Assembly (NCBI GenBank): GCA_029861535.1
Contig: JAOTZC010000005.1
Coordinates: 1 to 64,000 of the forward strand
Source: Gammaproteobacteria bacterium
GTDB lineage: Bacteria > Pseudomonadota > Gammaproteobacteria > Steroidobacterales > Woeseiaceae
DNA: 64,000 nucleotides
Reading direction: 5' to 3'
In this document: piece by piece, positions 20,279 through 49,371 of the stretch
How the letters are laid out: each line of letters opens with the position of its first letter
How positions within the stretch are numbered: position 1 is the first letter of the stretch
Notes under the pieces: model-generated
The model's input: only the letters and a program-made list of their open reading frames with translations
Told to the model about the DNA's origin: nothing
Database searches by the model: none
Position numbers and translations under genes: made by a program

Positions 20279-21358
20279 TTAGGGCACGCGTATGCTCAGC
20301 AAATCTGTCCCGACATGTATTTCGCCGCTGTAGCCGCTGGACCGGGTGGCAGCTTCAAAATCAGCGGCCTGCAGTGCCCCACCGGGGACAACAAACGGCC
20401 CGTGGGATTCGGCATCGAGGGTCGGGATCATGTGCGTCAGCACCAGGTGGCGGACCTTGGCTCGCTCGGCGAGCGCACCAAGATCGGCGGCGTTGCTTTG
20501 TCGATAGTAAACAGGCGCCGGAAAGCGGCTGCCGGCGCCGGGTCCGAAGACCGGGTGAATGACCGAGTGCACCAATACGTCGACGCCTTGGGCGAGCGAT
20601 TCTACAGATTCGGCCGTTGAAGAATCACGCGGTGGTGACGGCTTACTATTACCGGCGTCGCCGCCGATGACAACGCTACCGGCAGGCGTATCGATGCGGT
20701 AGGCCAGCGAACCTGCGATGTGTGCGGTTGCGATCGCACTGACCCTGACGTCTCCGGATTGCCAGACAACGTTACCCGGTTCGTTTGGCAATGGCAGCCC
20801 TACGGATACGAAGTTGACGATGCCGGCAGGACCATCGGCATGTCGTTTGTTGTTCTCCGCATACCGCTGCGCGATTTCACCCGAATGTATGAATGCGTCC
20901 GCGGTATGTTCGACAAGATTTCTGCAACTCATCGTGCGCTGGGGTGGCGGTCGGTTGCTGCTCACGTCGGCGCTGCAAACCACGTCAAGCGCATCGCCGA
21001 AAAAATGCCAGCGCAACTGCAACAGTCCTGCGAGACCTTCCGTATGGTCCGAGTGCACGTGGGTTAGGAAAACCGCATCAAGTTGATTTACTGTGATACC
21101 GAGTTGCGAAAGTCGTTCCGTCGTGCCCCGACCCGCATCGAACTGCAGTAGCACCTGACCGCAGTCATCTTCGACTGGGCCGTATTGCACCAACGTACCG
21201 GCACCTGCAAGCCCATTGACGGCCGGCGGCCCACCTTGTGTTCCGGTTAAGGTGATTTGCAAGCAGTTGTTTTGTCTTTCTTCGGGCGAGTCGGCGCACG
21301 CTGCAAGCGGCGCGAGCGCAAAAAACAGCGCAAAGCAAACCCGTAGATCAGTAATCAA
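20279..21358 (-). CDS. Exported metallo-beta-lactamase-fold hydrolase
   Basis: About 359 residues if started at TTG 21358, which gives a lipoprotein-like leader (LRVCFALFFALAPLAACADS). The frame stays open upstream, but that part lies inside the propeller gene in another frame and is not protein-like. The metal motif is FLTHVHSDHTEG (HxHxDH), with further expected ligands in GGDAGNS and LVLTHMIP. It resembles arylsulfatase AtsA/RNase Z-type hydrolases rather than beta-lactamases. It overlaps the end of the cytochrome/propeller gene by 11 bases and is the last gene of the E1-E2-propeller run. The start codon is uncertain and the substrate unknown. Confidence 0.75.
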   Translation of the reverse strand: MITDLRVCFALFFALAPLAACADSPEERQNNCLQITLTGTQGGPPAVNGLAGAGTLVQYGPVEDDCGQVLLQFDAGRGTTERLSQLGITVNQLDAVFLTHVHSDHTEGLAGLLQLRWHFFGDALDVVCSADVSSNRPPPQRTMSCRNLVEHTADAFIHSGEIAQRYAENNKRHADGPAGIVNFVSVGLPLPNEPGNVVWQSGDVRVSAIATAHIAGSLAYRIDTPAGSVVIGGDAGNSKPSPPRDSSTAESVESLAQGVDVLVHSVIHPVFGPGAGSRFPAPVYYRQSNAADLGALAERAKVRHLVLTHMIPTLDAESHGPFVVPGGALQAADFEAATRSSGYSGEIHVGTDLLSIRVP

Positions 21359-23093
21359 TGGCAATGCCCAACGCCGGATTAATGCCACCGCGAAAACCAC
21401 CTTGATCGCGAACAACCCGCGGTGTGCGCGTGTCATCATAGTGCACCCAAACGAGACCATGCGGATCACCGTTTTGCGGCATCCCAATAACCGAAATCTG
21501 CTCGCGAGTTTCGGTGTCGTACACGTAGATGCGCCCTTCACCGTTGCTCGTCGCCCACATCTCCTTGCCGTTCGGCGATAACAGCACGTGATCGACTTCG
21601 TAACCGGAGAACAGCGTGGCAATTTGCTGCCCGGTATCGGCTGAGAGCACAGAGAGCGTGCGGCCGAAGTGGCCGGTAGTCTCGCCTTTGTTGGCAATCC
21701 AGATCTCCGTCTCATCCGCGTTGAGGCTGGCCCCGTAGGGACTGATGCCCGCGGCTGCGGCCCAGACGACCTCGCCCGACTCCAGATTAATCTTACTGAC
21801 GTTTGAAGTGCCGGCGGCCGTCACGTACATGAATTCACTGTTGGCGTCGATCACGATCCAGTCACCGCGGAACCCCGGGTACGGATACTCACGAACAACT
21901 TCCCAGCTATCCGGATCAATCTTGGCGACCCAGAATGGCTTCATCGTCGTGATCTTCCCCTTGTACAGATTTATTGCGCCGAGCATGCCGGTCGATCGGT
22001 GCGACGCGTAACCGACAGGTTCCATCAGCACGTAGATGTATTTGTCGTCGGTGTACGCGGTATAGGAGGAACCGCCGAGGTCCTCATCGCGTACGCCACC
22101 AATGATCTTGTCGCTCTCAGGATCTAACAGCATCACATCGAGACCGTCGGGATCCCGCGCAAATGTATCCAGCAGCACGTATCGGTCGCGAAAAACCATG
22201 CCGTGGTGCAATCGGCCGCCCATTGTCATCTGCCTTACCGGCTGCAATGTCAGCGCATCCACTTTGATCAATGTCGCCGGGGCGTCGAGTGCGCGAATCT
22301 GGTTAGTCGGCTCGGAGTCTGGCTTGGAGCCGACGATGTAAACATATTTTCCGTCCGGTGACATCGCCGTCGTATGCACAGCAGCACGCAAACTGACGGG
22401 CAACTCGTAGCTTGCAATGACTTTCCGCGACTCGGCATCACCGACGACAACCTGCGATGACTTGGCATTGGTCGCGCCCGGTTCCAGCACCGAAAGATTG
22501 GCGGAATTGCCAACATTCTCGTAGAAATAAGTGTGATTTTTTTTCGGTTTGAATTTCGGCTTACCGGCATCAAATGTCGCAACCACTCGTGATTCGTAAG
22601 TGCTGAAGATCGGACCTACTTTGGAGCGGCGTTGCCAGTCAGCAATGACCGAGTCCCAGGTTTGAATCTCCTCCACCGCCTTGTCGCGCTCGGTCTTCGG
22701 AAAGATCAAATCGGTTTCCATCCGGGCACGCGCCGCAACTAGCTTCGCCCTGAAGTCGGCCGTCATGTTTTCGGTAATCTCGAGGTCGGCGAACGTTCGA
22801 ATGTAAACAGACAGCGCGATCAGATCTTCGTTGTTCGCTTTGAGTTCCTGAGCCAATGCGGCCATCTGCGGATTGTTCTGCAGCTGCTCAAAAATCTGTG
22901 CCGGCGTCGGCCCGTAGGTAATGTCCGGACCGATCAGCCCCTCGCCGGTTTTGGAGTGGCACACTGTGCACGATGCCGGGGCGTGATAGAGTTCTTCGCC
23001 GCGTTTGATCATCGCGTCGATATTTACCTGCGCAAAAACTTGCGTGGCTGCAAGACCTGTTATCAAAATTGCGAGGCTTTTGTGCCTGATCAT
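21348..23093 (-). CDS. Periplasmic cytochrome c fused to a YVTN-type beta-propeller
   Basis: A 581-residue exported protein. The signal peptide (AILITGLAATQVFAQ) is followed by a single-haem cytochrome c domain with CTVCH at residues 42-46. A helical linker of about 60 residues leads into a seven- or eight-bladed propeller with repeated blade motifs (MSPDGKYVYIVGS, IDANSEFMYVTAAG, LNADETEIWIANKG, LSPNGKEMWATSNG). The haem c plus propeller order recalls cytochrome cd1 and its relatives, but no NirS d1 signature is seen. ATG 23093 is two bases after the E2 stop codon; a TTG at 23114 is a weaker alternative. Its place between E2 and a metallo-hydrolase suggests a role in periplasmic oxidation or sensing linked to the same substrate. 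This is inference. Confidence 0.8.
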   Translation of the reverse strand: MIRHKSLAILITGLAATQVFAQVNIDAMIKRGEELYHAPASCTVCHSKTGEGLIGPDITYGPTPAQIFEQLQNNPQMAALAQELKANNEDLIALSVYIRTFADLEITENMTADFRAKLVAARARMETDLIFPKTERDKAVEEIQTWDSVIADWQRRSKVGPIFSTYESRVVATFDAGKPKFKPKKNHTYFYENVGNSANLSVLEPGATNAKSSQVVVGDAESRKVIASYELPVSLRAAVHTTAMSPDGKYVYIVGSKPDSEPTNQIRALDAPATLIKVDALTLQPVRQMTMGGRLHHGMVFRDRYVLLDTFARDPDGLDVMLLDPESDKIIGGVRDEDLGGSSYTAYTDDKYIYVLMEPVGYASHRSTGMLGAINLYKGKITTMKPFWVAKIDPDSWEVVREYPYPGFRGDWIVIDANSEFMYVTAAGTSNVSKINLESGEVVWAAAAGISPYGASLNADETEIWIANKGETTGHFGRTLSVLSADTGQQIATLFSGYEVDHVLLSPNGKEMWATSNGEGRIYVYDTETREQISVIGMPQNGDPHGLVWVHYDDTRTPRVVRDQGGFRGGINPALGIAIDY

Positions 23094-23095
23094 GG

Positions 23096-24286
23096 TCAAA
23101 ACTCTTTGTCCCAATCGCTTGATTCGAGAATCGTTTTCAACTGCTGCAAGTACGCGGCCGAGTATGCACCATCAATCGCGCGATGATCGAATGAATGGGC
23201 CAACACTCCGATCGGCCGAATCTCGATCGAATCGCCCGCATCCGATTCGATGACATGGGGTCGTTTCTTGACCGCATCCATCGACAAAATCGCAACCTGC
23301 GGCTGATTGATGATCGGCGCCGTAAATAAGGTACCAAAAGGCCCAGGGTTGGATAACGTGTACGTTCCACCCCGCAGGTCATCCGGCGTGAGCTTATTTG
23401 ATCTTGCCCGCGTCGCCAGGTCATTGAATGCTATTGCCAGTTCGGACACAGACAAGCCCGCCGCGTTCTTCAGAACGGCAGCAACAAGGCCTTCGTGGTT
23501 TAGGTCGATCGCGATTGCAAGATTAATTTCCGGGTGCAACACGAGTGCGTCGTTATCGACGCTGGCGTTAATCCTCGGAAAATCTGCAATCGCCAAACAG
23601 ACCGCACGGGCGACGTATGGCATGTAGGTCAGCGAGTAAGCGTGCTTAGACTTCCATGATTCGCGTTTTGCGAGCCGCGACTGGTCAACGGCATGGAAAT
23701 CAACGTCGATTGCCTGCAATACATGCGGCGACGTAGCTTTCGAACGTACCATGTGTTCCGCGGTAACTTTTCGGACGCGATCAAAAGGAAAGCGGTTCGC
23801 GCTACTAGAACTCGCTACCGGCGAAGCTGCGCCGTCGACGTGGTCAAGCACATCCTGGCGTGTGACGCGGCCATCGCGGCCACTGCCTGGAATGCTTTTG
23901 ATATCGAGATCATGCTGCTTGAGCAATCGCCGGACCGCCGGCGATATCCTGTCGCCGCCCGATTTAGCTGGTAGACCGCCGCCCGTGGATTTCGGTGCCG
24001 CGGACCCGGCGTCGGCTTTAGCAGGGCTGTCTCGCACGGCCTCGACAACTTCGCCCTCGACGGCGATAACGGCGAGCACGGTTCCGACGTCCACTGTCTC
24101 GCCTTCCGCAATCAGAATGTCTCTGAGCACACCGGACCCGGGCGCCGTAATCTCTGTCGCGACCTTGTCGGTTTCGACATCGAGCAACATGTCACCTTTC
24201 TCGACGGTATCCCCGGCTTTCTTGTGCCAGGCAGCGATCGTGCCTTCGGACACCGTCTCGCCCAGTTGTGGCATCAATACATTCAC
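23096..24286 (-). CDS. 2-oxoacid dehydrogenase complex E2 (dihydrolipoamide acyltransferase)
   Basis: A 396-residue E2. The N-terminal lipoyl domain has the lipoylated Lys41 in VETDKVATE. A Pro/Ala-rich linker follows, then a peripheral subunit-binding domain (ISPAVRRLLKQHDLDIKSI) and the catalytic acyltransferase domain with SFDHRAIDGA near the end, including the active-site His and Asp. Only one lipoyl domain is present, as in acetoin and branched-chain complexes. It is ordered E1-alpha, E1-beta, E2 with short or overlapping junctions. No E3 gene is in the window, so a housekeeping lipoamide dehydrogenase would be shared. The acyl group is not determined. Confidence 0.93.
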   Translation of the reverse strand: MNVLMPQLGETVSEGTIAAWHKKAGDTVEKGDMLLDVETDKVATEITAPGSGVLRDILIAEGETVDVGTVLAVIAVEGEVVEAVRDSPAKADAGSAAPKSTGGGLPAKSGGDRISPAVRRLLKQHDLDIKSIPGSGRDGRVTRQDVLDHVDGAASPVASSSSANRFPFDRVRKVTAEHMVRSKATSPHVLQAIDVDFHAVDQSRLAKRESWKSKHAYSLTYMPYVARAVCLAIADFPRINASVDNDALVLHPEINLAIAIDLNHEGLVAAVLKNAAGLSVSELAIAFNDLATRARSNKLTPDDLRGGTYTLSNPGPFGTLFTAPIINQPQVAILSMDAVKKRPHVIESDAGDSIEIRPIGVLAHSFDHRAIDGAYSAAYLQQLKTILESSDWDKEF

Positions 24287-24295
24287 TCGGCCTTC

Positions 24296-25273
24296 CTAAT
24301 CAGCCAGTTGCAACACGCTGGCTACAATTCTGTCAGCGCTGGGTAGGACCGCGTCTTCGAGCGCATCGGCCGACGGAAGTGGCACGTGTGGCGTCGTCAC
24401 TCGTACGATCGGGCCTTCAAGATCCCAAAACAATTCTTCAGCAACGAGCGACGACACTTCTGCACCCCAGCCGCAAAGACGCGGATTTTCTTCAACGGTG
24501 ACAAGTCGCGCTGTTTTCGACACCGATGTGAAAATCGTCGTTGTATCGAGTGGCACGAGCGAACGAACATCGATGACCTCAGCGGCAATGCTATGTTCGT
24601 CTTGCAGTGTCTGTGCTGCTTTCATAGCGCGCGGCACCATTGCGGCGAGCGCCACAATGGTCACATCGCTGCCCTCGCGCAAGACACGGGCGTTGCCGAG
24701 CGGCACTACATGCTCACCGTCCGGCACGTCGTCCTTGGTGCCGTAAAGCGACTTTTGCTCGAAGAACAAAACCGGGTCTGGATCGCGAATCGCCGCGGCG
24801 AGCAGCCCTTTAACGTCTGCCGCGCACGACGGTGCAACGACTTTGAGTCCCGGTACCGCCATTGCCCAGTTTTCGACGCTCTGTGAATGCTGCGCGCCGA
24901 AGCGGGCGCCACCACCGTTTGCGCAACGAATCACGAGTGGAAACGAACACTGGCCGTCGGTCATAAAACGCGTCTTCGCAATCTGGTTAACGACGAGATC
25001 CCAGCAAACCGCGAAAAAGTCCGAGAACATGATCTCGGCGATCGGCCGGAGGCCAGTCATTGCCGCACCCATCGTCGCACCCACGATCGCCTGCTCCGAA
25101 ATAGGTGTGTCGCGTACTCGCATCGGACCGAACTCATCCAGCAGACCTTCAGTCGTCTTGAACACACCGCCCGCCGCAGCAATATCCTCGCCGAGAAAAA
25201 CGACCAACTCGTCGCGACGCATTTCCTGTGCGATGGCGGCGGACACGGCCTCTCTGTAGCTCAACAGCGCCAT
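24296..25273 (-). CDS. 2-oxoacid dehydrogenase E1 beta subunit
   Basis: A 325-residue transketolase-like subunit that pairs with E1-alpha to decarboxylate a 2-oxoacid on thiamine diphosphate. Diagnostic stretches are VVFLGEDIAAAGGVFKTTEGL, RVRDTPISEQAIVGATMGAA, RCANGGGARFGAQHSQSVE with the conserved His, and VIDVRSLVPLD of the C-terminal domain. The length matches acetoin/branched-chain type beta subunits. It overlaps the E1-alpha gene by 13 bases and ends nine bases before E2. Confidence 0.93.
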   Translation of the reverse strand: MALLSYREAVSAAIAQEMRRDELVVFLGEDIAAAGGVFKTTEGLLDEFGPMRVRDTPISEQAIVGATMGAAMTGLRPIAEIMFSDFFAVCWDLVVNQIAKTRFMTDGQCSFPLVIRCANGGGARFGAQHSQSVENWAMAVPGLKVVAPSCAADVKGLLAAAIRDPDPVLFFEQKSLYGTKDDVPDGEHVVPLGNARVLREGSDVTIVALAAMVPRAMKAAQTLQDEHSIAAEVIDVRSLVPLDTTTIFTSVSKTARLVTVEENPRLCGWGAEVSSLVAEELFWDLEGPIVRVTTPHVPLPSADALEDAVLPSADRIVASVLQLAD

Positions 25274-26289
25274 GCCGAGCTCCCATCTGCCCAGAGGTCG
25301 GTGTCGGCGATCTCGAGCGGGGGTGGCCCGCTGTTGCGCGCCATCTGTTCGGCTTTGTCCACTCTTGCCGCTTGCTCGGCCTCGATTTCAGCAATTGACG
25401 ATTCGTCAACCCCGTCGGCAAGCAAGCGAGCGCGGTAGATCGTGATCGGGTCACGTTCCATCCACGCCGCCACTTCTTCGTCAGGACGGTATTTGCCCGG
25501 ATCTGCGCGTGAATGACCACCGTGTCGGTATGTCTGTACTTCGATAAGACTGGGACCGCCGCCGCTACGAGCCTGCTCAAGGGCGGCAGACGCGACCGCA
25601 TAAACAAGGTCCGCGTCGTTGCCGTCGATAACGACAGGCTCCAAACCGTAAGCCGAGGCGCGATCGGCCGCGGGATTTGCGACGGCTGTCACCTGGGCGA
25701 TGGGCGTGTATTCCATGTACAGGTTATTTTCGCAAACGTACACGACCGGAAGTTCCCAGATTTTCGCGAAGTTCAATGACTCGTGAAACGCACCAATGTT
25801 GGTGGTGCCATCACCAAAGAAACACACGGCAACTTGACCCGATTTCCGGTATTGCGCAGACCAGGCCGCACCCGCGGCGACTGGCATGTGCGCGCCAATG
25901 ATCGCGTAAGAGCCCATCGCACCTTTGTCGATGTCCATCAGGTGCATCGAGCCGCCCTTGCCGCTCAACAAGCCGCATTCGCGTCCCATCAGTTCGCCCA
26001 GTATCGCGGTCATCGAAACACCGCGCACCAGTGTGTGGTTATGGCCCCGATACGTGCAAAAGGAATAGTCATCGTCACGCATCGCAGCACCGAATCCTGC
26101 CGCGACGGCTTCCTGTCCCAACGCCAGGTGCGACGTACCTTTGATCAGATTCTGCATGAAAAGATCGTAGGCCCGCTGTTCCATGACGCGGCAGGACTGC
26201 ATCAGGCGATAAAGCTCGAGGCGGGTTTCGGCATCGGGCGTCCCGGCGTTCTCTACAGCAGCCGCAAGCTGCCCTGTCGTGTCGTCCAA
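25261..26289 (-). CDS. 2-oxoacid dehydrogenase E1 alpha subunit
   Basis: A 342-residue thiamine-diphosphate subunit. The ThDP-binding motif runs from FFGDGTTNIGAFHESLNFA to VVYVCENN. The phosphorylation-loop region TYRHGGHSRADPGKYR is well kept. It is the first gene of the E1-E2-propeller-hydrolase operon. About 100 bases upstream of the start hold AT-rich ATCGAT palindromes that may be operators. The substrate may be pyruvate, acetoin or a branched-chain acid; sequence alone does not separate these. Confidence 0.93.
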   Translation of the reverse strand: MDDTTGQLAAAVENAGTPDAETRLELYRLMQSCRVMEQRAYDLFMQNLIKGTSHLALGQEAVAAGFGAAMRDDDYSFCTYRGHNHTLVRGVSMTAILGELMGRECGLLSGKGGSMHLMDIDKGAMGSYAIIGAHMPVAAGAAWSAQYRKSGQVAVCFFGDGTTNIGAFHESLNFAKIWELPVVYVCENNLYMEYTPIAQVTAVANPAADRASAYGLEPVVIDGNDADLVYAVASAALEQARSGGGPSLIEVQTYRHGGHSRADPGKYRPDEEVAAWMERDPITIYRARLLADGVDESSIAEIEAEQAARVDKAEQMARNSGPPPLEIADTDLWADGSSAWRC

Positions 26290-34984: not shown

Positions 34985-35517
34985 CGATCGTCACCATCGT
35001 TGTGACCGGCCAGCGCGCGTATATGTCGCCAAACCAAGCCGAGAAACACGAACACGACCGTGATCGCGCCGATCACGAGGACTAGCCGTACGGGCCAGAC
35101 GGGCACGACAAAAATACCCTTGTTACCCGAGTAGTAACCGCGCTCCCACGCATCGATGAAACGCGGAATCCCCCCCGCGATAATCGTAATAAAGAATGCC
35201 ATGCCCGCAAGATCAAAGAACGCGCCGAGAACGTGCCCGAAACGGGGGTTCTTTTCACAGATTCGGTTGTAAAGCCCTTCGGAACGCGTCAATCGGCCGC
35301 TCCGAACGGCGTCGCTGAGTTGCAAAAATACGATCGCAACAATCGACAGCTCGACGAGCTCGGTTACGCCGTCGATCGGTGCGTTGAACAAGAAACGAGA
35401 GAACACATCGAGATTGATCATCACGATAAGGCCGAAAATCAGCGCACCGCCCGCACTGTTCAGTCCTGCGACAAACGCAGAAAACGCGCGCGTAATGACG
35501 TTGCCTTCCTGCTTCAA
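34981..35517 (-). CDS. TRAP transporter small permease (DctQ family)
   Basis: A 178-residue membrane protein with four hydrophobic helices. IFGLIVMINLDVFSRFLFN and GVTELVELSIVAIVFLQL are typical DctQ sequences. It pairs with the large permease downstream (4-base overlap) and begins two bases after the binding-protein stop codon, so the three genes are translated as a set. Confidence 0.93.
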   Translation of the reverse strand: MKQEGNVITRAFSAFVAGLNSAGGALIFGLIVMINLDVFSRFLFNAPIDGVTELVELSIVAIVFLQLSDAVRSGRLTRSEGLYNRICEKNPRFGHVLGAFFDLAGMAFFITIIAGGIPRFIDAWERGYYSGNKGIFVVPVWPVRLVLVIGAITVVFVFLGLVWRHIRALAGHNDGDDR

Positions 35518-35519
35518 TG

Positions 35520-36602
35520 CTATTCCCTATCCCACTGGCGCATGATGGGTTGCTTATTCGCACGCATAATGTCCATGTAGTCACGCAAGATGTCGTTTCC
35601 CGGCAGGCCACGCTCCTCCATGTCGTCAGCCCAATCTCTGGCAATATTCGGCAGACCCATTGCCCAGACTCGGCGTTGCTCGTCGGACAAAGTCATAATT
35701 TTGCCGCCGTTCTCGATGTATAGCTGCGTGCTGCGAGCGGCACGTCGATCGGTTTCGCGTGCGAGTTCGTCACGATAGTCTTTTGCCGTTTGTATTAGGA
35801 CTGTCCTGACTTCCTCAGGAAGTCGATCCCACGTGCGCTCATTGACGACGATCGCTTTGGTCGCAACGGCACCGAGTCTGACATCGACCATGTACGGCGC
35901 CACTTCGTAAAGCCGATAGGCGATGCTGCCCTCGATCCAACCGATGACACCGTCGATGAGCCCCGTCGCCAAATTGTTGTACCAATCGCTGATGCCACTG
36001 TTGACGGGCGATGCATCGAGGCCCGTCAGTAAGCGAAGATTCAATCCGACCCCGGCGATTTTGCGGCCTTTGAAATCGTCCAGCGTATTAACCGGGTAAT
36101 TCGTCAACACCTGGTAGGTGTCGATCGAACCCGCAGTGGTCAGGAACACGAGTCTGTGGCGCTTCCATTCTTCGGCCAGAATCGGGTAGCGGTCGACGAG
36201 TTCGGACATCGTTCGGGCTACCAGGCCGATATCAGACGTGACGAGCGGCGTCGCGTAGGGCAAGTTGTGGAACGGTACTTTGTCTGGATGATACGGGGTC
36301 GTGACAATGCCAATGTCGGCGAGATCATGCTCAATAGAATCGAGTACACCGCGTGTCTTGGCAATGGTGCCACCAAACGCCTTGTTCCAGCGTATCTTGT
36401 AATTTCCACTTTCAGCCAGCCGTCGATCGACCTCGGGAATGAAGTACTCAACAAATACCAGAGTCCACAGTGCCGTCGTCGCGTAAGAATCAACGGCGAT
36501 AAGCGGGATTTCCTCAGGTTTCGTTTGTTGCGCGCTCGCTGGCAACGCCGCGACGCACATCAGAGCGGCCGCTAGTGAGACATATAAAAGACGATTCAGC
36601 AT
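35520..36602 (-). CDS. TRAP transporter substrate-binding protein (DctP family)
   Basis: A 360-residue periplasmic binding protein. ATG 36602, with GAGAA just upstream, gives a good signal peptide (LLYVSLAAALMCVAALPASAQ). An ATG at 36623 is an alternative. The mature part follows the DctP pattern: ADIGIVTTPYHPDKVPFHNLPYAT, LDDFKGRKIAGVGLNLRLL with the conserved Arg region that binds the ligand carboxylate, and ATKAIVVNERTWDRLPEEV. It is first in the TRAP-DoxX operon and divergent from a GntR regulator, which probably controls it. Confidence 0.92.
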   Translation of the reverse strand: MLNRLLYVSLAAALMCVAALPASAQQTKPEEIPLIAVDSYATTALWTLVFVEYFIPEVDRRLAESGNYKIRWNKAFGGTIAKTRGVLDSIEHDLADIGIVTTPYHPDKVPFHNLPYATPLVTSDIGLVARTMSELVDRYPILAEEWKRHRLVFLTTAGSIDTYQVLTNYPVNTLDDFKGRKIAGVGLNLRLLTGLDASPVNSGISDWYNNLATGLIDGVIGWIEGSIAYRLYEVAPYMVDVRLGAVATKAIVVNERTWDRLPEEVRTVLIQTAKDYRDELARETDRRAARSTQLYIENGGKIMTLSDEQRRVWAMGLPNIARDWADDMEERGLPGNDILRDYMDIMRANKQPIMRQWDRE

Positions 36603-36707
36603 GTTCTCGGTATTTTTTGCCATGCGAGATAGTAGCGGGGCTAGAACTGCTATACAAATAATATCGATGAAAGTAGTATAAGTCCCAGTTAATCGAAAAT
36701 ATTGCAG

Positions 36708-37424
36708 ATGGCCCGTCAAAAAGCCAAAACCGAAGTGGAATCAGCGACGAATAACGGCAACGGTCGGATTTCGACCCAGGCCTCATCGGTCTACGATCGG
36801 CTGCGCGTCGATATTTTGACGGGGCAGTTGCAACCGGGCCTGAAGCTGCGGCTCAAGGACCTGATCGAGAAATACGACACCGGTAATAGCCCATTGCGAG
36901 AGGCGCTGAACCGCTTGTCGGCCAACGGCATGGTCGTGCGCGAGGAAAATCGAGGCTTTCGCGTGCCGCCCGCGAGTAGCAATGAGCTGACAGAGCTTAC
37001 GCGCACCCGTTGCTGGCTCGAGGAAATCGCTTTACGTGAATCGATCGCCAACGGCGATAGTCAATGGGAAGAGCGCATTGTTCTTGCATTCCACTGGCTG
37101 GCGCATGCGGCACGCAGCAACAACGAATCCGACAAATACACGTCCCCCGAATGGGAAGATCATCACCGTGAATTTCATCTCGCCCTGCTTTCAGCGTGCA
37201 ACTCAAACATTTTGATGGGCTTCTGCACAGAATTGCATCAGCGCACGTTTCGCTACCGCAATCTCGCCGAAGTGGTCGAGTATCGCGATCGTCACGAACT
37301 CGAGGAACATGATGAGCTGCAAAAGGCGGTGCTGAATCGCGACGCCGACCTTGCCGTCGAGTTGCTAAAGAAACACTACACGGTGACCTCAGAAATCCTG
37401 CTCGCTAGCGGACACTTCGACTAA
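36708..37424 (+). CDS. GntR-family regulator (FadR/FCD type)
   Basis: A 238-residue repressor-type protein. The N-terminal winged helix includes SVYDRLRVDILTGQLQPGLKL and SPLREALNRLSANGMV. The C-terminal FCD domain has the acidic and His metal/ligand positions in WEDHHREFHLAL and HELEEHDELQKAVLNRD. ATG 36708 is used. It is divergent from the TRAP operon and co-transcribed with the HIBADH-like and OsmC genes. FCD regulators often sense organic acids such as lactate, malonate or gluconate, which suits a carboxylate transporter. Confidence 0.93.
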   Translation: MARQKAKTEVESATNNGNGRISTQASSVYDRLRVDILTGQLQPGLKLRLKDLIEKYDTGNSPLREALNRLSANGMVVREENRGFRVPPASSNELTELTRTRCWLEEIALRESIANGDSQWEERIVLAFHWLAHAARSNNESDKYTSPEWEDHHREFHLALLSACNSNILMGFCTELHQRTFRYRNLAEVVEYRDRHELEEHDELQKAVLNRDADLAVELLKKHYTVTSEILLASGHFD

Positions 37425-38799: not shown

Positions 38800-39513
38800 T
38801 TACCAACGAAACTTGTATTCGAGCCCAGCGGCAAGGTTCTCCTCGTTGCCAATTCGAAAATCGTTCCTGCGGTACTCGGAGATTGCATAAAGTTTGTCGA
38901 AGAGTCGCACGCCAAGCTGTATTTCGGTCACGATGGGTGTGCTTGGCAGTGCACCCAAAGTATCGAGCTTAAACGTCTGGTCAACGAAACCGCTCAGGTA
39001 GAGACGTTTGGTCAAATTCATGCGAAAGAAATGCTCGATCTGCCAAGCGTCGCTATCGTCAAACTCGAAGCGCTTGACTTGAAACGTAATTCGATAGACC
39101 AGGTTGATGCGCTTAAAGAAGTCTCGCCATACTGTCGTGTCGTGAACGCGCCAGCCCAAACCTAGCTGATAAAAGTCGTTGCCGTCACCTCGTACGAGTA
39201 CGCCCTGAAAATTGAGATCGATCGGTAAACTGTCCGAGACTGCGTACCTCAGGTTTTGCTCTGATCGGGCAAACACTGCGTTTCCGTCGGTTACAACGCC
39301 CCGTACATTGACGTATCCAAAGTACGAGAAGCGACCCGGCAATGACGCATTGATCGTCGTTGTGAAATCGACGTCGTTATCGACTGCTCGCTGGTAGGGA
39401 TAAAGACTGACATCCATCCGCAACTTCGGTGGGCTACCTTCCTGCGCGTTGGCGGTCGAGACAAACAGAGCAGTCAGGATTATCGCGCTGTCAACGAGTC
39501 GTCGTCTCGCCAT
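38800..39513 (-). CDS. Predicted outer-membrane beta-barrel protein of unknown family
   Basis: A 237-residue exported protein that I do not recognise. ATG 39513 gives a signal peptide (LVDSAIILTALFVSTANA). The mature part is rich in alternating aromatic/polar strands (FSYFGYVNVRGVV, LYLSGFVDQTFKL, LAAGLEYKFRW) and ends in Trp, as outer-membrane barrels do. It overlaps the upstream small membrane protein gene by 23 bases and closes the SCO-CcdA-propeller operon. It may be a porin-like or anchoring partner for that system. Confidence 0.65.
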   Translation of the reverse strand: MARRRLVDSAIILTALFVSTANAQEGSPPKLRMDVSLYPYQRAVDNDVDFTTTINASLPGRFSYFGYVNVRGVVTDGNAVFARSEQNLRYAVSDSLPIDLNFQGVLVRGDGNDFYQLGLGWRVHDTTVWRDFFKRINLVYRITFQVKRFEFDDSDAWQIEHFFRMNLTKRLYLSGFVDQTFKLDTLGALPSTPIVTEIQLGVRLFDKLYAISEYRRNDFRIGNEENLAAGLEYKFRW

Positions 39514-39886
39514 CGGCCTGCTTGATCGCAATTGTCGAGAATACAACGGCAATAACCCACAGCAGCGGGCCGAACACGCCTGGAATGATAGGCACGTATC
39601 CCGGTACCAGCACGAACACGATGAAGCCGATATCTGCAGCACTGACCACAATCAGGTTGACCCAATAGCCTAGACGACTGTTGTTCAAGTTCTTACCAAC
39701 AGCTACAGCGATTGCAACCGTCGCAAAAAACAATAAGTCCCAGGAGAGCTGGAGTATGCGCCCCTGCAGCGGGCCGGCATCGAGAGAATGACCCATTTGC
39801 CACACCATTTGGGCCGCCTTCAGGTGCAACAAGCCCCAGAAAACGTAGGCGGTCGCCCCCAATTTCGATAACACGTTCGAATTCAT
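39491..39886 (-). CDS. Small four-helix membrane protein of unknown family
   Basis: A 131-residue hydrophobic protein with about four helices: KLGATAYVFWGLLHLKAAQMV, LSWDLLFFATVAIAVAVG, LIVVSAADIGFIVFVLVPGY and VFGPLLWVIAVVFSTIAI. I cannot assign a family. It lies between the propeller gene (18-base gap) and the outer-membrane barrel gene (overlap). It is therefore part of the five-gene operon that begins with SCO. Confidence 0.65.
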   Translation of the reverse strand: MNSNVLSKLGATAYVFWGLLHLKAAQMVWQMGHSLDAGPLQGRILQLSWDLLFFATVAIAVAVGKNLNNSRLGYWVNLIVVSAADIGFIVFVLVPGYVPIIPGVFGPLLWVIAVVFSTIAIKQADGETTTR

Positions 39887-39904
39887 ATTATTGCTACCTT
39901 TGTA

Positions 39905-41008
39905 TTAGTGACAGACGTTATTGCTCAACCCTACGGTAAAGGCGCCGCTGCCATTCTGTGTCGCCGGTACAAATTTCACCGTGTGATCTTCAAGGTCGAC
40001 AAGGGCCACTTCGGCAATGTCGGCGAAAGCGATAAAGGCTAGCTTGCCATCAGCAGCCCCAAGCGCGCCAATCGGCGTGCCTTTAAATGTGCCACTTGCG
40101 ACTACGGCTTGCGTGACGTTGTCGAAGATCGACCAATGGCGATTGCTGGAGCTCAGGAACAGGTTCATGCGATCGAAACGACCAACCGTAACCAAGTCTA
40201 CGCCATGGTCGAAGGCCGCGGTCGCAAATTCGGTAAACCCGTTTTGTTCGACACTAACAAGCCGGCCGTTTTCCTCGTCCAGCATGTACATGAATGCACC
40301 CTGTGGCGTGGTGTACGGACGTGCCGGCACACCCCCGAAGTCGAATGTCTTAAAGATGACGTTTGAATAGGCATTAAGACTGTAAACCTCGCCCGTGGTG
40401 ATGTTGGCCACATAAAGGTAACGCGCATCGAGGCTGCGACTCGGCGATGATAGCTTGGCACCAGCCTCATCAACCAAGGTCATCTCATAGATACGCTGCG
40501 TATTGATATCGAGCAAGCCCAGCGACCCCTTGGCCACGTCGCTGAAATAAATATCAACGTCGTTGGGATCGAACAGCACCTCGGCTGTAGCCGGGAAGTC
40601 TTCGAGTGCGAACTCTATGGTTTTCTTGTACGCATGAATCAACACAAAACCGCCTTCGACATTGTCCGATATACCGATTTTCGATCCAGTCGTATCCAAC
40701 ACCACATGTCGAGGCGTCATCGGCAGGTCGAGTTTGCTTATTTCGACCTGCTTGTCCAAATCGTAAAAGACTGCTTGCTGTAGCTTGACGTCCGCGTACA
40801 TCAGAATCGGCGCGAACGGTGTTGCGACAATGTGATCGGGATGAATGCTGGTCTCAATACGATGCACGACCTCGGCGTCTTTGACCGACAATACGTCAAT
40901 AATATTCTGTGTGCGGTCACCGACAAACATGAACTTAGTCGGGTCGCTGATATCGGCAGCCTGCACAGTGCAGGATACTAACAACAGGATTGACCAGATG
41001 AAGCGCAT
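39905..41008 (-). CDS. Exported beta-propeller protein (YncE-like)
   Basis: A 367-residue secreted protein. ATG 41008 opens a signal peptide (RFIWSILLLVSCTVQA). The rest is built of propeller blades: KFMFVGDRTQNIIDVLSV, ARYLYVANITTGEVYSLNAY, GAFMYMLDEENGRLVSVE and LAFIAFADIAEVALVD. There is no haem-binding motif. It ends NNVCH, where a lone Cys-His could bind metal. It starts ten bases after the CcdA/DsbD-like gene stop. An in-frame ATG at 41053 would overlap that gene and is less likely. It is probably a periplasmic scaffold or binding protein in the SCO operon; the true function is unknown. Confidence 0.72.
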   Translation of the reverse strand: MRFIWSILLLVSCTVQAADISDPTKFMFVGDRTQNIIDVLSVKDAEVVHRIETSIHPDHIVATPFAPILMYADVKLQQAVFYDLDKQVEISKLDLPMTPRHVVLDTTGSKIGISDNVEGGFVLIHAYKKTIEFALEDFPATAEVLFDPNDVDIYFSDVAKGSLGLLDINTQRIYEMTLVDEAGAKLSSPSRSLDARYLYVANITTGEVYSLNAYSNVIFKTFDFGGVPARPYTTPQGAFMYMLDEENGRLVSVEQNGFTEFATAAFDHGVDLVTVGRFDRMNLFLSSSNRHWSIFDNVTQAVVASGTFKGTPIGALGAADGKLAFIAFADIAEVALVDLEDHTVKFVPATQNGSGAFTVGLSNNVCH

Positions 41009-41018
41009 TGTCGACAAC

Positions 41019-42380
41019 TCAGCTGAGCCCGAGATACGGATAAATTGCATCACTCACGACGTGAAAATTATCGGTAATCAGTATGAGTCCGAAAACGATG
41101 ATTAATATCATGCTGAAGAAGCTTATCGCCCGCGCCTTGCTTGCAAGCAAAACGAGCACGCTCTCCATTCGTGACATGAAGTACGCCGCAAGCAGAAAAG
41201 GAATCGCCACACCCAGCGAAAACGTCGCCATGATTCCAGCCCCTATCGCAGCGCTACCGATGGCGCCAACGTAGATTATCAACGTCGCAACAATCGCACC
41301 GCCAAAGCAAGCAGTGCAGCCAAGTGCATATCCCATCGACACCAATAACGACGAAGCTGCATCACGCCTGTTCGCAGTTGACATAGCCCGGCGGTCCGGA
41401 ATCCGGCAGGCGATATTGCGCGTGCCGCGAATACCAATCCAGATTCCCATCAGGATTACAACAATTCCCGAGACAACTGTAACGGTCCGGCTGTATTCAG
41501 AAAACAATAGTTGCGCCGTGTGGCCGACGTGGCCAATCACTGCACCGGCAAGTGTATACAGCAGCGTGAAACCGATGACGAACGCGAGCGCAATCTGCAT
41601 GACCTTTCTGCGAATGTGCGGCGTCAACTGACTAGTACTTAGGCCGGCTTCGCCGGGAACGGTTGCGAATGAGCTGATAATGGAGCCAAAAATCACCACG
41701 AGCTGCAGAAGACAGGGCGTCAGCACGGATGATAATAGGCCTGCGCCGAGCGCCAGCATGGCGACCGGCGTGATATCAGCTCGCGAAGTCAATTCCTCGG
41801 GCAGCTCGTAAGGCGCGTCCCAGCGACCAATAAAAGTCAGCTTGTCCTCGCTGTCTAGATAATAGTTCGACACGAACAGTCGAACGCCGTCGTGCTGCTC
41901 TATGTCGATGATGCTGCCGTCGCGGTCTCGCTTGGGAATGCTGTACACGGTAATACGATGATGTTCGGCCAGATTCGGACCGATCGACCGCTCCGGCGCG
42001 TACACCTTGTCGCCGATGTGCAGCTCGACCTCGGGAAGGTCGAACGCGAGCTGGCCCTCATGAATGTTTTCGCTAACAAAGAAAATGAAATTCCGATCAG
42101 GGCGCAGATTGCCGACGACATTTGCACGATCGACGTATTGGAAGAATTCGTCGGTCGCAAACGTCGCAGTAAGCTCCAATTCCGGGTGATCGACGAGATA
42201 GCGGGTCAGGTATAACGACACGCGGCCACCCTTGGTCATACGTGCGCCGGCCCCCGTGTCGCTGAGCAGTTGTTTACCCTGGATGAAATACGGAAAAATC
42301 AACCATGTCGACGAGATGATCAGACTTACAAGCAGGACGATGCCCGCCTTTGAATAACTAATGCGTGCTGCGAATGCCAT
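41019..42380 (-). CDS. CcdA/DsbD-like thiol transporter with N-terminal periplasmic domain
   Basis: A 453-residue membrane protein. One N-terminal helix anchors a periplasmic domain of about 170 residues that I do not recognise. About six helices of the DsbD/CcdA kind follow. The redox Cys positions are visible in LSSVLTPCLLQLV and ALGCTACFGGAIV, the two half-repeats that shuttle electrons across the membrane. It starts 14 bases after SCO and precedes a propeller gene. It probably supplies reducing power to periplasmic partners such as SCO. The periplasmic domain has no CxxC, unlike DsbD. Confidence 0.78.
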   Translation of the reverse strand: MAFAARISYSKAGIVLLVSLIISSTWLIFPYFIQGKQLLSDTGAGARMTKGGRVSLYLTRYLVDHPELELTATFATDEFFQYVDRANVVGNLRPDRNFIFFVSENIHEGQLAFDLPEVELHIGDKVYAPERSIGPNLAEHHRITVYSIPKRDRDGSIIDIEQHDGVRLFVSNYYLDSEDKLTFIGRWDAPYELPEELTSRADITPVAMLALGAGLLSSVLTPCLLQLVVIFGSIISSFATVPGEAGLSTSQLTPHIRRKVMQIALAFVIGFTLLYTLAGAVIGHVGHTAQLLFSEYSRTVTVVSGIVVILMGIWIGIRGTRNIACRIPDRRAMSTANRRDAASSLLVSMGYALGCTACFGGAIVATLIIYVGAIGSAAIGAGIMATFSLGVAIPFLLAAYFMSRMESVLVLLASKARAISFFSMILIIVFGLILITDNFHVVSDAIYPYLGLS

Positions 42381-42394
42381 ACGCTGTTTCTTGC

Positions 42395-42934
42395 CTAGAG
42401 CATCGCGGCGGCAATCTCGCGCGAAGCCGTGCTCATCGTGAAGACGTCGATAAGTGAGCCATCGGGACCTATAAGAAAAATGCTCGGTGTATGTTGCACC
42501 GTGTAATTATCCTCGGATTTCGTGACCACAAAAGTTACGTTAAAATTCTTCGCCGCGGCCGATACCTGTTCGTAGCTGCCGCTCAGACCAACCATATTGT
42601 CGCCAAACTTGAGCGCATAATCGTCAGTGACTGACGGCGAATCGCGCTCTGTATCCACGCTAATAAATACGCCTACCGCCGCTTTCTCCGCTGCCTTAAT
42701 GGATCGCGCCATGTTCGCCGCGATCATCGGGCAAATGTGAGCGCAGTGAGTAAAGCCGAAAGCCAGCAAAACATTTTGTCCTCGAAATGCCTCGATACTG
42801 ACGCGCTCGCCATCGCGATCGAGCAGCTCAAATCCGACGGTGACGGCATCGAGTACATTGGGTTTTTTTGAATCCTGGGCCGCCACCGTGCTGAAACACA
42901 GCAACAGCAATGCAAGGGCCGACATTTTGCGCAT
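42395..42934 (-). CDS. SCO1/SenC-family copper/thiol protein
   Basis: A 179-residue periplasmic thioredoxin-fold protein. The signal peptide (SALALLLLCFSTVAAQ) is followed by the copper-binding CxxxC, C64 and C68 in THCAHICPM, and the third ligand H148 in YTVQHTPSIFLIG. SCO proteins deliver copper to cytochrome c oxidase or related cuproenzymes, or reduce their Cys ligands. It is the first gene of a five-gene operon without any oxidase gene. GAGG lies upstream of the ATG. Confidence 0.9.
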   Translation of the reverse strand: MRKMSALALLLLCFSTVAAQDSKKPNVLDAVTVGFELLDRDGERVSIEAFRGQNVLLAFGFTHCAHICPMIAANMARSIKAAEKAAVGVFISVDTERDSPSVTDDYALKFGDNMVGLSGSYEQVSAAAKNFNVTFVVTKSEDNYTVQHTPSIFLIGPDGSLIDVFTMSTASREIAAAML

Positions 42935-43042: not shown

Positions 43043-43987
43043 CTAATGGAGCGACTGTTCCTCGGCAGTCAGGCGGCGTTGCAAGCTCGCGAGCGAGGAA
43101 TCCGCGTAGTTGATGCAAGCTCCGGTGTCGACAAACGGATTGGCGTCGCCATTTTTTACGAGCTTGGCCTTCATGTCGAAACGGAACGGGTGATTCGACA
43201 AGAAAATATCGCACTTCAGCGCGGCAATTATTTTGGCGCTATTCTTTAGATTGTCTGCCGCTATGCGTGGTGCGGTGCTGAACATATAGCCGTCGGCCGA
43301 TATTGGGCTAAGGCTGTCCGCGTAAACAACGTTCAAGCATTCGTGGCCATCGCAGGACAGCCAGGTCCAGCTTATTCCACCCGGCGTATGCCCCGGGGTG
43401 TATAGCGCGCGAATCTCGGTATCGCCAAGCTGCAAAATCTCCTCGTCAAAAACTGCCCGGACACCCGAGCATGCTGGAAACCACGACTCTTTCGCTGCAA
43501 CGGAAAACTGCGGATCATTATCCTCGAGCATTCCAATATCAAGGGACGATTTGCCCGCATTGCTCGTCAACACTGTTGCACCGGATAGACGTTGCAAAGC
43601 GGCGATACCACCGACGTGGTCGAAGTGAACGTGAGAAACAAGGATCAGACTTACATCTTTGATGTCAAAGCCAAGTTTGCGAATACTCTCGTGAATCAAT
43701 GTGGCCGACTGTGGGAGGCCGCCGTCGATCAATACCAGCCCATCTCCGGTATCGATCAGTATCGATGAAAGTCCTGCAACGCCAACATAATAAGTATTAG
43801 CGAAAATGCGAAACGGCTCCTGCGGCTGATTCCAATCAACACAGAAATCACATTCGATCGGCGGATCGAATACTGCATCGCCGCAGCCGCCGAAAAAGCT
43901 GCCAAGCAGCAGCACAACGCCGAACGGCGCGTGTATCAACAGTCGACTGTCGTTCGGTGCTAGATCAGGCACCAAGTTCTGCAGCAT
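43043..43987 (-). CDS. Subclass B3-type metallo-beta-lactamase
   Basis: A 314-residue exported protein. The leader VVLLLGSFFGGC is lipoprotein-like. The body matches subclass B3 enzymes (L1, FEZ, BJP type) along its length: FRIFANTYYVGVAGLSSILI, VLIDGGLPQSATLI, SHVHFDHVGG (ligands H116, H118, D120, H121 in standard numbering), LYTPGHTPGGISWTW (H196), VVYADSLSPI and LSNHPFRFD (H263). It also keeps two Cys at the positions of the conserved C-terminal disulfide (ALKCDI, GACINYAD). All zinc ligands are present, so beta-lactam hydrolysis is plausible. The start is uncertain; ATG 44041 is possible. It overlaps the S-formylglutathione hydrolase gene. Whether it confers resistance is not shown. Confidence 0.83.
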   Translation of the reverse strand: MLQNLVPDLAPNDSRLLIHAPFGVVLLLGSFFGGCGDAVFDPPIECDFCVDWNQPQEPFRIFANTYYVGVAGLSSILIDTGDGLVLIDGGLPQSATLIHESIRKLGFDIKDVSLILVSHVHFDHVGGIAALQRLSGATVLTSNAGKSSLDIGMLEDNDPQFSVAAKESWFPACSGVRAVFDEEILQLGDTEIRALYTPGHTPGGISWTWLSCDGHECLNVVYADSLSPISADGYMFSTAPRIAADNLKNSAKIIAALKCDIFLSNHPFRFDMKAKLVKNGDANPFVDTGACINYADSSLASLQRRLTAEEQSLH

Positions 43988-44819
43988 GAAACCGCAGATG
44001 TTCTTCGATAAAAGTCGAGATGAAGTAATAGCCGTGGTCATAGCCTTCGTGGATACGTAGCTTCAATGGCAGGCCGCTTGATGCACACGCTGCCTGAAGC
44101 CGATCCGGCATCAGCTGCTCCCCCAGGTACGGGTCATCGCCACCTTGATCGACCAAAATCGTCGAATAATGCGACGGGTCCTGTACATTTCGCGCAACTT
44201 CACACGCATCATAATCGTGCCACTTCGACGTGTCGCTTCCGAGATAGTAAGCAAGCGCCTTTTGTCCCCACGGTGAGTACAGTGTGGTGCAGATCGGTGC
44301 GAAAGCACTCAATGATCGAAATAGGTGCGTATTTCGAAGACCAATGGTCAAAGCGCCATGCCCACCCATCGAGTGCCCGGTCAGTCCGTGTCGCTCGCGA
44401 TCGCCGGGGAAGTTATCGAATACGACATCCTGCAACTCACGGGTGACGTAGTCGTACATGTGGTAGTTCGTCGACCAAGGCTGTTCCGTTGCGTTCAGGT
44501 AGTAACCCGCGGCCAGGCCAAAATCGTAGTCGCCGTCAGGGTCATCTGGCACATTATCACCGCGCGGGCTGGTGTCAGGCGAAACGACCATCAGCCCAAG
44601 CTCGGCCGCGACTCGCTGCGCGCCGCTTTTGACCATGAAATTCTCCTCCGTGCAGGTCAGCCCGGATAAGAAAGTGACAACAGGTGTTGCGCCGTCGCGC
44701 GCCTGCGGCGGGACGAAGACCGAAAACTGCATTGCGCAGTTGTTGGCCACGGAGTCGTGCCGGTAAAAGCCGATTCTGCCGCCGAAACAATTAGTTTCAT
44801 TAAGGGTTTCTAGGTTCAT
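43965..44819 (-). CDS. fghA: S-formylglutathione hydrolase
   Basis: A 284-residue serine esterase of the glutathione-dependent formaldehyde oxidation route, hydrolysing S-formylglutathione to formate and glutathione. The oxyanion region is FLSGLTCTEENFMVKSGAQR. The nucleophile Ser lies in LTGHSMGGHGALT, the catalytic Asp is likely in ILVDQGGDDPYL, and the His is in EGYDHGYYF, all typical of FghA/esterase D. No formaldehyde dehydrogenase gene is adjacent. Its 3' end overlaps the metallo-beta-lactamase gene. Confidence 0.93.
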   Translation of the reverse strand: MNLETLNETNCFGGRIGFYRHDSVANNCAMQFSVFVPPQARDGATPVVTFLSGLTCTEENFMVKSGAQRVAAELGLMVVSPDTSPRGDNVPDDPDGDYDFGLAAGYYLNATEQPWSTNYHMYDYVTRELQDVVFDNFPGDRERHGLTGHSMGGHGALTIGLRNTHLFRSLSAFAPICTTLYSPWGQKALAYYLGSDTSKWHDYDACEVARNVQDPSHYSTILVDQGGDDPYLGEQLMPDRLQAACASSGLPLKLRIHEGYDHGYYFISTFIEEHLRFHAAELGA

Positions 44820-46740: not shown

Positions 46741-47805
46741 TCATGTTTTATCGTAGTCGAGGGTCACGGTCTTGCTTGTTGGCCGAGATTGACAAGCCAA
46801 CACGAAGCCCGCTTCAACCTCCCAGGGTTCGAGGCCGTAATTTGTCGCCATAACCACACTGCCGTCACGTATGTGGCAGCGACAGGTAGCGCATACGCCA
46901 CCTTTACAAGAATACGGCAGATCAATGCCATGTTCGGCGGCCGCATTGACGATATTTTCGTCGCTGTCGTTCATGTCGAACGACTTCTTGTGGCCATCCA
47001 TTATGACGGTAATCGTGGCCGCGTCAGCTGTGTCGGTCTCGAGCGTTGGCCGAGTCGTCTTTCGCGGTGCCCCGAATCGTTCGGAATGAATACACTCGGA
47101 TTGCATGCCGAGCTCGATCAAAGCGCCGGTAACGTCTTCGATCATCGAGTCCGGGCCACAGATGAACGCTTCATCGACGCCAATACCTCGGCAAAAGCAC
47201 GCCCAAAGTTCGCGAACTTTGTCTCGATCAAGCCGGCCAGCGGCGATCGCAAATTCCTGCTCTTCTTGACTGAAGACGAAATGTAGCTGCAGCCGCTCGG
47301 GATAACGGTTCTTCAATGCATACAAGTCGTCTATAAACATTGTCGTCGACTGTTTGCGATTGCCATAAAACAGACAGAATTGGCTGCCAGGTTCGTTGCT
47401 AAGAATCGACGCAATGATCGACAGGATTGGCGTAATACCACTACCTGACGCAAATCCTAGATAGGTCTTTTCGTTGCTGCTTTCCGGGCTGGCATGAAAC
47501 TGCCCGAACGGTGGCATGACCTCCAGCTGATCACCGAGCTGCAATTCATTGGCTGCAAATTCTGAGAATCGACCACCTGGCTGTACCCGAATGCCGATCT
47601 CAAGCGGCCATGCGCCGGGTTCCGAACAAATACTATAGGTTCGCCGCAATGCTTTGCCGTCTCGCAAAATTCGAATCGGCAAGTGCTGACCCGGCATGAA
47701 TTCGAATTCGGATCGCAACTCTTCCGGCACATCGAGTGCTAAACGAACCGAGTCGCGTGTCTCTTCGCGTTTATTGGCAACGGTGAGCGCGTGAAACTGC
47801 TTCAT
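46741..47805 (-). CDS. paaE: Phenylacetyl-CoA epoxidase reductase PaaE
   Basis: A 354-residue flavin reductase that passes electrons from NADPH to the PaaA di-iron site. The FAD domain has the RxYS-type motif RRTYSIC, the NAD domain has FASGSGITPILSI, and the C-terminal ferredoxin domain carries the 2Fe-2S ligands in PYSCKGGVCATCRCHIRDG with a final Cys in LACQSRP. It is the last gene of paaABCDE and starts three bases after paaD. Confidence 0.95.
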   Translation of the reverse strand: MKQFHALTVANKREETRDSVRLALDVPEELRSEFEFMPGQHLPIRILRDGKALRRTYSICSEPGAWPLEIGIRVQPGGRFSEFAANELQLGDQLEVMPPFGQFHASPESSNEKTYLGFASGSGITPILSIIASILSNEPGSQFCLFYGNRKQSTTMFIDDLYALKNRYPERLQLHFVFSQEEQEFAIAAGRLDRDKVRELWACFCRGIGVDEAFICGPDSMIEDVTGALIELGMQSECIHSERFGAPRKTTRPTLETDTADAATITVIMDGHKKSFDMNDSDENIVNAAAEHGIDLPYSCKGGVCATCRCHIRDGSVVMATNYGLEPWEVEAGFVLACQSRPTSKTVTLDYDKT

Positions 47806-47808
47806 GAA

Positions 47809-49351: not shown

Positions 49352-49371
49352 TGGGTACCTCCGCTTGAGCG

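What the first reader, a model, noticed from the sequence alone, without database searches (positions are those of the whole stretch)
38800..42934. Unassigned five-gene operon: SCO, CcdA/DsbD-like, beta-propeller, small membrane protein, outer-membrane barrel
The genes are tightly spaced (gaps of 14, 10 and 18 bases, then an overlap) and span the inner membrane, periplasm and outer membrane. SCO and the CcdA-like protein point to copper or thiol redox chemistry, but there is no oxidase, nitrous oxide reductase or cytochrome gene beside them. The CcdA-like protein has a periplasmic domain that I do not recognise, and the last two proteins fit no family known to me. This is the best candidate in the window for an undescribed envelope system, perhaps for copper handling or maturation of an unknown cuproprotein.
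Basis: partly seen in the sequence, partly recalled or inferred. Interest (0 to 1): 0.7.

Follow-up and report, generated by a model that had tools for sequence, protein, structure and literature searches.

The report
Maturation module for copper-propeller cytochrome enzyme
Two or three neighbouring genes that travel together in scattered bacteria probably load copper into a little-known periplasmic enzyme encoded nearby, so a seemingly orphan gene set gets a likely partner and a testable job.

Summary
The five genes exist as described, but the conserved core is SCO, a CcdA-like membrane protein with a periplasmic domain (DSB) and a beta-propeller (PROP). Of 45 fetched loci with a DSB gene model, PROP is present in 37 (within 50 bases in 35) and SCO in 32. 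The small membrane protein and the barrel are accessory.

CYTP or a related propeller (CUPP) lies in 29 of the 45 fetched loci, and all 15 of 196 order genomes with close DSB carry close CYTP, which is in 18 (Fisher p 8e-20, phylogeny uncorrected). Invariant or nearly so: SCO CxxxC and His; four Cys and four His of DSB; a Cys-His at the very end of PROP (40 of 41); five propeller His of the enzyme. A profile of its first blades weakly finds thiocyanate dehydrogenase (E 2.8e-5), one invariant His falling on the residue mutated in TcDH H447Q; generic propellers score better and CUPP alone does not find TcDH.

Best reading: a copper-maturation module for a TcDH/NosZ-like propeller dehydrogenase with its own haem c, inside a catabolic island. 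Copper, substrate and chemistry are inferred.

The parts
42395..42934 (-). SCO: SCO1/SenC-type protein with signal peptide (by eye); C64xxxC68 and H148
   Evidence: Pfam PF02630 E 8.6e-34; best solved relatives human SCO1 and Blr1131; C64, C68, H148 in 31 of 31 homologues aligned
41019..42380 (-). DSB: N-terminal helix, periplasmic beta-sandwich (about 51-192), CcdA-like membrane core (206-453); invariant H107, H140, H141, C223, C325, C355xxC358, H440
39905..41008 (-). PROP: secreted (by eye) YVTN-type beta-propeller ending in SNNVCH
   Evidence: matches generic propellers only; ends in CH in 40 of 41 full-length homologues, CHS in the other
39491..39886 (-). MEM: 131 aa membrane protein, accessory; may pair with BAR
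   Evidence: no family hit; elsewhere only a 31-residue match ahead of BAR in G012
38800..39513 (-). BAR: 237 aa, outer-membrane barrel by eye (signal peptide, C-terminal aromatic); accessory
   Evidence: no family hit; homologues in G012, G013, G028 (57-66%) of 60 relatives searched
21348..23093 (-). CYTP: putative client enzyme; N-terminal cytochrome c (C42xxC45H46), propeller with H240, H296, H297, H502, H545
   Evidence: co-occurrence; starts 2 bases after the gene 23096-24286
23096..26289 (-). three genes upstream of CYTP that look like E2, E1beta and E1alpha of a 2-oxoacid/acetoin-type dehydrogenase (named by eye); relatives in the same order in L182 and L183
33665..38790 (.). neighbours of the core shared with G014, G028 and G124: TRAP transporter (33665-36719), GntR-like regulator, 3-hydroxyisobutyrate dehydrogenase-like, OsmC-like

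Best explanation
SCO, DSB and PROP form a dedicated periplasmic maturation module for CYTP, a secreted cytochrome c-propeller dehydrogenase whose propeller binds a copper site of the kind seen in thiocyanate dehydrogenase (TcDH) and NosZ. Proposed steps: DSB passes reducing equivalents across the inner membrane through its CcdA-like cysteines, keeping the SCO cysteines and the C-terminal cysteine of PROP reduced, and its His-bearing periplasmic domain may hold Cu(I); SCO carries copper; PROP docks on the apo-enzyme and hands copper over through its Cys-His tail; the finished enzyme oxidises a small periplasmic substrate and passes electrons to its own haem c. Shown here: conserved core, linkage and co-occurrence with CYTP/CUPP, invariant residues, a propeller model. 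Inferred: copper, the division of labour, a catabolic substrate (perhaps organosulfur).
For: Co-occurrence: of 196 order genomes all 15 with close DSB (E below 1e-40) have close CYTP (E below 1e-100), which is in 18 (Fisher p 7.6e-20); of 60 relatives the same five have close PROP and close CYTP; of 321 class genomes only the own one has full-length DSB or the propeller at E 1e-20. Distance matrices of DSB and enzyme correlate over 27 loci, r 0.81, 0 of 5000 permutations. Residues: H240, H296, H297 in 31 of 31, H502 30, H545 29; DSB eight residues 42 of 42; SCO three residues 31 of 31; PROP tail CH 40 of 41. Relation to copper propellers: profile A9 finds pmTcDH 8q9x at E 2.8e-5, and the first His of the invariant pair aligns on a His of 8q9x that reads Q in 8yu5, the H447Q mutant by its title. 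Precedent: genes of Cu-dependent methanethiol oxidase sit with SCO1/senC (PMC5739008, passages). Signal peptides of CYTP and CUPP look Sec-like by eye, so a metal would be inserted in the periplasm.
Confidence: 0.58

Rival explanations
1. Redox/cytochrome maturation rather than copper: SCO and DSB act as a thiol-disulfide relay that prepares the haem c site (CxxCH) of CYTP and other cytochromes; PROP is a scaffold.
For: DSB is CcdA-like; CYTP has a CxxCH cytochrome c domain; SCO-fold proteins can act as thiol reductases (recalled).
Against: DSB carries three invariant His in its periplasmic domain (42 of 42), which a pure CcdA relay would not need (inference). Of 12 CUPP proteins only 2 hold a CxxCH (L131, L133); in 8 loci the cytochrome is a separate neighbouring gene, yet the module stays with the propeller. 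Of 69 order genomes with only weaker DsbD-type hits, 2 (G080, G105) have close CYTP.
Confidence: 0.2
2. The propeller cofactor is not copper: CYTP is a cytochrome cd1-like or quinone enzyme (NirS/NirN or quinohaemoprotein type), and the module serves that cofactor.
For: Foldseek puts NirN, NirS and methylamine dehydrogenase chains near the top; weak profile hits to Cytochrom_D1 and QH_beta.
Against: TM-scores are about 0.4 with rmsd 12-20 for most of these rows, so the match is largely architecture; SCO with intact copper ligands is part of 32 of 45 loci; the His pair aligns on a TcDH His. Haem d1 genes were not searched for.
Confidence: 0.13
3. The module is a general copper-supply or oxidase-assembly set whose link to CYTP is neighbourhood inheritance inside a catabolic island.
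For: In G014, G028 and G124 a long stretch on both sides is shared with the window, so linkage there alone says little; the best solved relatives of SCO include oxidase assembly proteins.
Against: DSB and the enzyme family are also paired in Alpha-, Beta- and Deltaproteobacteria bins (L138, L124, L143), and apart from DSB, PROP, SCO and the enzyme no gene cluster is shared by more than 7 of 49 loci. Full DSB is absent from 320 of 321 class genomes sampled, most of which should make haem-copper oxidases (inference). No oxidase gene was recognised by eye among the 25 clusters printed.
Confidence: 0.09

Closest known systems
Thiocyanate dehydrogenase (TcDH; PDB 8q9x, 8yu5, 5f75)
   Different: TcDH has a Tat signal and its clusters are described with copCD or cus genes (PMC6504805, PMC5744179, passages); no SCO-DSB-PROP set was mentioned in the passages seen; sequence similarity is marginal and CUPP alone does not find it
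Methanethiol oxidase MtoX / SBP56
   Same: Copper-dependent periplasmic enzyme whose gene sits with SCO1/senC, ligands proposed to include a His pair (PMC5739008, passages); propeller fold (PMC10362175, passages)
   Different: Partner is MauG, not a CcdA-like protein or a second propeller; no SBP56 hit at E up to 0.1; hhalign probability 43%
Nitrous oxide reductase NosZ and lactonase-type L-NosZ
   Different: TIGR04246 at most 24.6 bits against cut-off 625, L-NosZ 12.3-20.5 bits against 700; no full NosZ in the own genome, a bin 76% complete
CcdA / DsbD / ScsB membrane electron carriers
   Different: No thioredoxin domain seen; invariant periplasmic His; NCBIfam DsbD 24.6 bits against 330

Membership tests
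SCO1/SenC | Pfam SCO1-SenC above gathering score, CxxxC and distal His | tested here: met
   116.8 bits, cut-off 22.8; C64, C68, H148 in 31 of 31 homologues
CcdA/DsbD membrane domain | DsbD_TM profile over cut-off and conserved membrane cysteines | tested here: met
DsbD protein (three-domain) | curated DsbD model over cut-off | tested here: not met
   NCBIfam PRK00293.1 24.6 bits against 330; matched part is the membrane domain only
NosZ (clade I/II) | curated NosZ profile over the cut-off | tested here: not met
   best 24.6 bits against 625, in the cupredoxin part of L056; one propeller-part hit of 12.7 bits (L045); no hit for the window's CYTP at E up to 0.1; hhalign probability 7% (CUPP) and 5% (CYTP)
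L-NosZ (clade III) | NF052460 over the cut-off | tested here: not met
   CYTP 15.7, its relatives 12.3-20.5 bits against 700; one (L055) without a hit
SBP56 / methanethiol oxidase | Pfam PF05694 | tested here: not met
   not among the hits at E up to 0.1 of the window's CYTP, L046, L055, L056 and L059 proteins; hhalign probability 43%
Thiocyanate dehydrogenase | full active-site set listed in PMC6504805 (K103, H135, H136, Q156, H206, E288, D314, H381, H437, H482, H528, D529, R544) | tested here: inconclusive
   profile A9 E 2.8e-5 to 8q9x over 89 positions, one invariant His on the H447 position and one on another H-SPDG motif; A3 finds no TcDH; the other residues were not aligned
TcDH/NosZ-type copper site | copper bound by the propeller histidines | not testable with these tools
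   needs metal analysis or a structure
Cytochrome c oxidase or nos assembly locus | oxidase or nos genes beside SCO | tested here: inconclusive
   none recognised by eye among the window ORFs of 200 aa or more and the 25 recurrent clusters printed; neighbours were not all scanned with profiles

The most novel reading that the evidence does not exclude
CYTP and CUPP are a new branch of copper-cluster propeller enzymes with a built-in or paired haem c, oxidising a so far unknown natural substrate, and they are assembled by a new kind of copper-insertion system: a CcdA-like protein that combines electron and copper relay through a His-bearing periplasmic domain, and a second propeller that delivers copper through a C-terminal Cys-His tail.
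Probability: 0.38. Interest if true: 0.8.

Novelty: new variant of a known kind. Interest (0 to 1): 0.6.

Why it matters
Few enzymes with copper clusters in a propeller are known (NosZ, TcDH, methanethiol oxidase; recalled), and a TcDH paper notes that copper acquisition and insertion remain to be determined (PMC5744179, passage). If right, this gives a new enzyme family with up to seven full-length paralogues in one genome (G055), its dedicated maturation set, and precise residues to test. It also ties a catabolic island of Woeseiaceae to a periplasmic oxidation.

Tried and rejected
Not supported: NosZ membership (hhalign) although His spacing looks alike (NosZ numbers recalled); SBP56 membership; five genes as one machine. 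Oxidase assembly is judged unlikely, not excluded. The CUPP profile alone found no TcDH. Control: the PROP profile shows no TcDH row in the 60 of 224 printed; 164 rows were not seen. Plasmid searches found only matches to parts of generic propellers or CcdA proteins. Rfam: no family at gathering score in the window. Promoter-like and terminator-like sites were 7 against a shuffle mean of 5.0 (sd 2.3) and 13 against 8.2 (sd 3.3) and say little on co-transcription. VIA-align rows for DSB were mainly CcdA, common beta-sandwiches and one metal transporter. Literature: searches, judged from their listings and a few passages, showed no paper on this gene set; subscription papers and preprints are not held. 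Alignment A7 had a wrongly trimmed window row and was replaced by A8.

Left out of counts: remote relatives (DSB, PROP or CYTP hits weaker than the stated E-values, among them G003, G008, G012, G013, G017) from the co-occurrence counts; L100, L119 and the second L111 model from the 41 PROP tails (two cut, one spurious at 30 bits); four loci of the 49 (L109, L112, L141, L142) have no DSB gene model, because an overlapping ORF was chosen or the match is at a contig end.

Full report
Anatomy. SCO is a member of SCO1/SenC by Pfam (116.8 bits, cut-off 22.8) and DSB carries a CcdA/DsbD membrane domain (40.7 bits, cut-off 27.1); PROP hits only generic propeller models, below their cut-offs, MEM and BAR nothing at E up to 1.

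Which genes belong together. PROP was sought in 60 relatives and DSB in 196 genomes of the order; 20 stretches were read; one scan of named species genomes with a DSB alignment gave 49 loci, 45 of them with a DSB gene model. Of the 45, PROP is in 37 (within 50 bases of DSB in 35, further off in L122 and L138) and SCO in 32; 29 have all three. The usual order is SCO-DSB-PROP or DSB-PROP-SCO. The records are named as Woeseiaceae, other Gammaproteobacteria, Rhodobacteraceae (one assembly, Alg231_30, with five loci), Pseudovibrio, an Alphaproteobacteria, a Betaproteobacteria and a Deltaproteobacteria bin, and others; the Deltaproteobacteria locus (L143) has a cut DSB beside CUPP and no PROP seen, and a Flavobacteriales locus (L144) is a short fragment. 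MEM has, outside the own genome, only a 31-residue match in 183 loci held, at the start of the BAR homologue of G012, so MEM and BAR may be a pair of their own. BAR is in 4 of 60 relatives, own genome included; all four carry a close or remote core. In G028 it follows PROP; in G012 it lies beside TRAP, GntR and dehydrogenase genes related to those of the window.

The missing partner. The gene upstream of SCO in many relatives is a protein of about 580 residues with an N-terminal cytochrome c and a propeller (CYTP); in a second group the gene upstream of DSB is a propeller (CUPP) followed by, or fused to, a cytochrome c with a cupredoxin-like domain. The window has its own CYTP at 21348-23093, 15.7 kb from the operon; in G014, G028 and G124 it is likewise about 13-18 kb from the core. 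Of the 45 DSB loci, 29 hold a CYTP or CUPP gene in the fetched flanks (in L110 9 kb off, in L122 on the other strand), 3 hold a cut copy at the contig start, 4 have it elsewhere in the genome, and 9 are unresolved. All three core genes plus the enzyme in one fetched locus: 17 of 45. In 196 order genomes close DSB (E below 1e-40) is in 15 and close CYTP (E below 1e-100) in 18, with all 15 shared (Fisher p 7.6e-20, not corrected for relatedness). Among 60 relatives the same five genomes have close PROP and close CYTP. In 321 class genomes no genome but the own one has a full DSB or the propeller at E 1e-20; six others match only the plain CcdA part. CYTP and CUPP are homologous (hhalign probability 99.75, E 3.2e-27). 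Over 27 loci the distance matrices of DSB and enzyme correlate with r 0.81, reached by 0 of 5000 permutations; shared descent could give much of this.

Residues. In the enzyme family H240, H296 and H297 (581-residue numbering) are in 31 of 31, H502 in 30 and H545 in 29; H475 is not conserved (8 of 31). Several stand just ahead of SPDG-type turns, which suggests inner-strand positions facing the channel; I had no coordinates to measure this. DSB keeps H107, H140, H141, C223, C325, C355, C358 and H440 in 42 of 42, SCO keeps C64, C68 and H148 in 31 of 31. PROP, although only 16-22% identical between the window and the remote groups, ends in Cys-His in 40 of 41 full-length members; three other models were left out as cut or spurious (L100, L119, second L111).

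Context. Relatives of the window's M24 gene at 13.7 kb (67-73%, four loci), dehydrogenase at 10.9 kb (59 and 69%, two loci) and LacI (39-44%, four loci) also lie in CUPP loci, one of them an Alphaproteobacteria bin (L138). The two M24 proteins match the DddP model far below its cut-off (101.8 and 121.1 bits against 600), so an organosulfur substrate is only a guess. In L105-L109 MoxR- and DUF58-like genes follow (named by eye).

Mechanism and limits. The evidence fits a module that loads copper into CYTP/CUPP in the periplasm: SCO as carrier where present, DSB as reductant and perhaps copper holder, PROP as docking protein with a metal-binding tail, electrons leaving through haem c. The precedent of SCO1/senC beside copper-dependent methanethiol oxidase (PMC5739008, passages) supports the logic. 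No metal, activity or transcript has been measured, and the role of PROP rests on its tail alone.

Noticed in passing
43043-44041 (-): Gene directly upstream of SCO matches the NCBIfam subclass B3 metallo-beta-lactamase model over its cut-off (284 against 240 bits); described only.
   Followed up: no
13742-15043 (-) and 30858-32102 (+): Two M24-family proteins related to, but far below the cut-off of, the DMSP lyase DddP model.
   Followed up: partly
L177:7612-8469 and just before: In G012 a MEM-like tail piece runs into the start of the BAR homologue, away from the core: MEM and BAR may be a unit of their own.
   Followed up: partly
L097 and L128 (one Woeseia contig): The same genome carries two cores about 36 kb apart, one with CUPP beside it, the other with CYTP about 13 kb away.
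   Followed up: partly
L139:12650-18153: Rhodobacteraceae Alg231_30 has three CYTP genes in tandem behind one DSB-PROP pair, and five DSB loci in all.
   Followed up: no
G055: Seven full-length CYTP places plus a fragment in one genome, suggesting several substrates.
   Followed up: no
L105-L109, downstream of PROP: MoxR-like, DUF58-like and further genes resembling the mxaR/S/L set of methanol dehydrogenase clusters (by eye).
   Followed up: no
L056, L059 C-termini; L045:9485-10126: Cytochrome c plus cupredoxin-like domain with a CxxC near the end in place of a CuA motif (motif judged by eye).
   Followed up: no
L103:7982-9511: A CYTP propeller whose cytochrome c part is called as a separate 121-residue ORF.
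   Followed up: no
46741-50364 (-): Genes that look like a phenylacetate degradation (paa) set, by eye.
   Followed up: no
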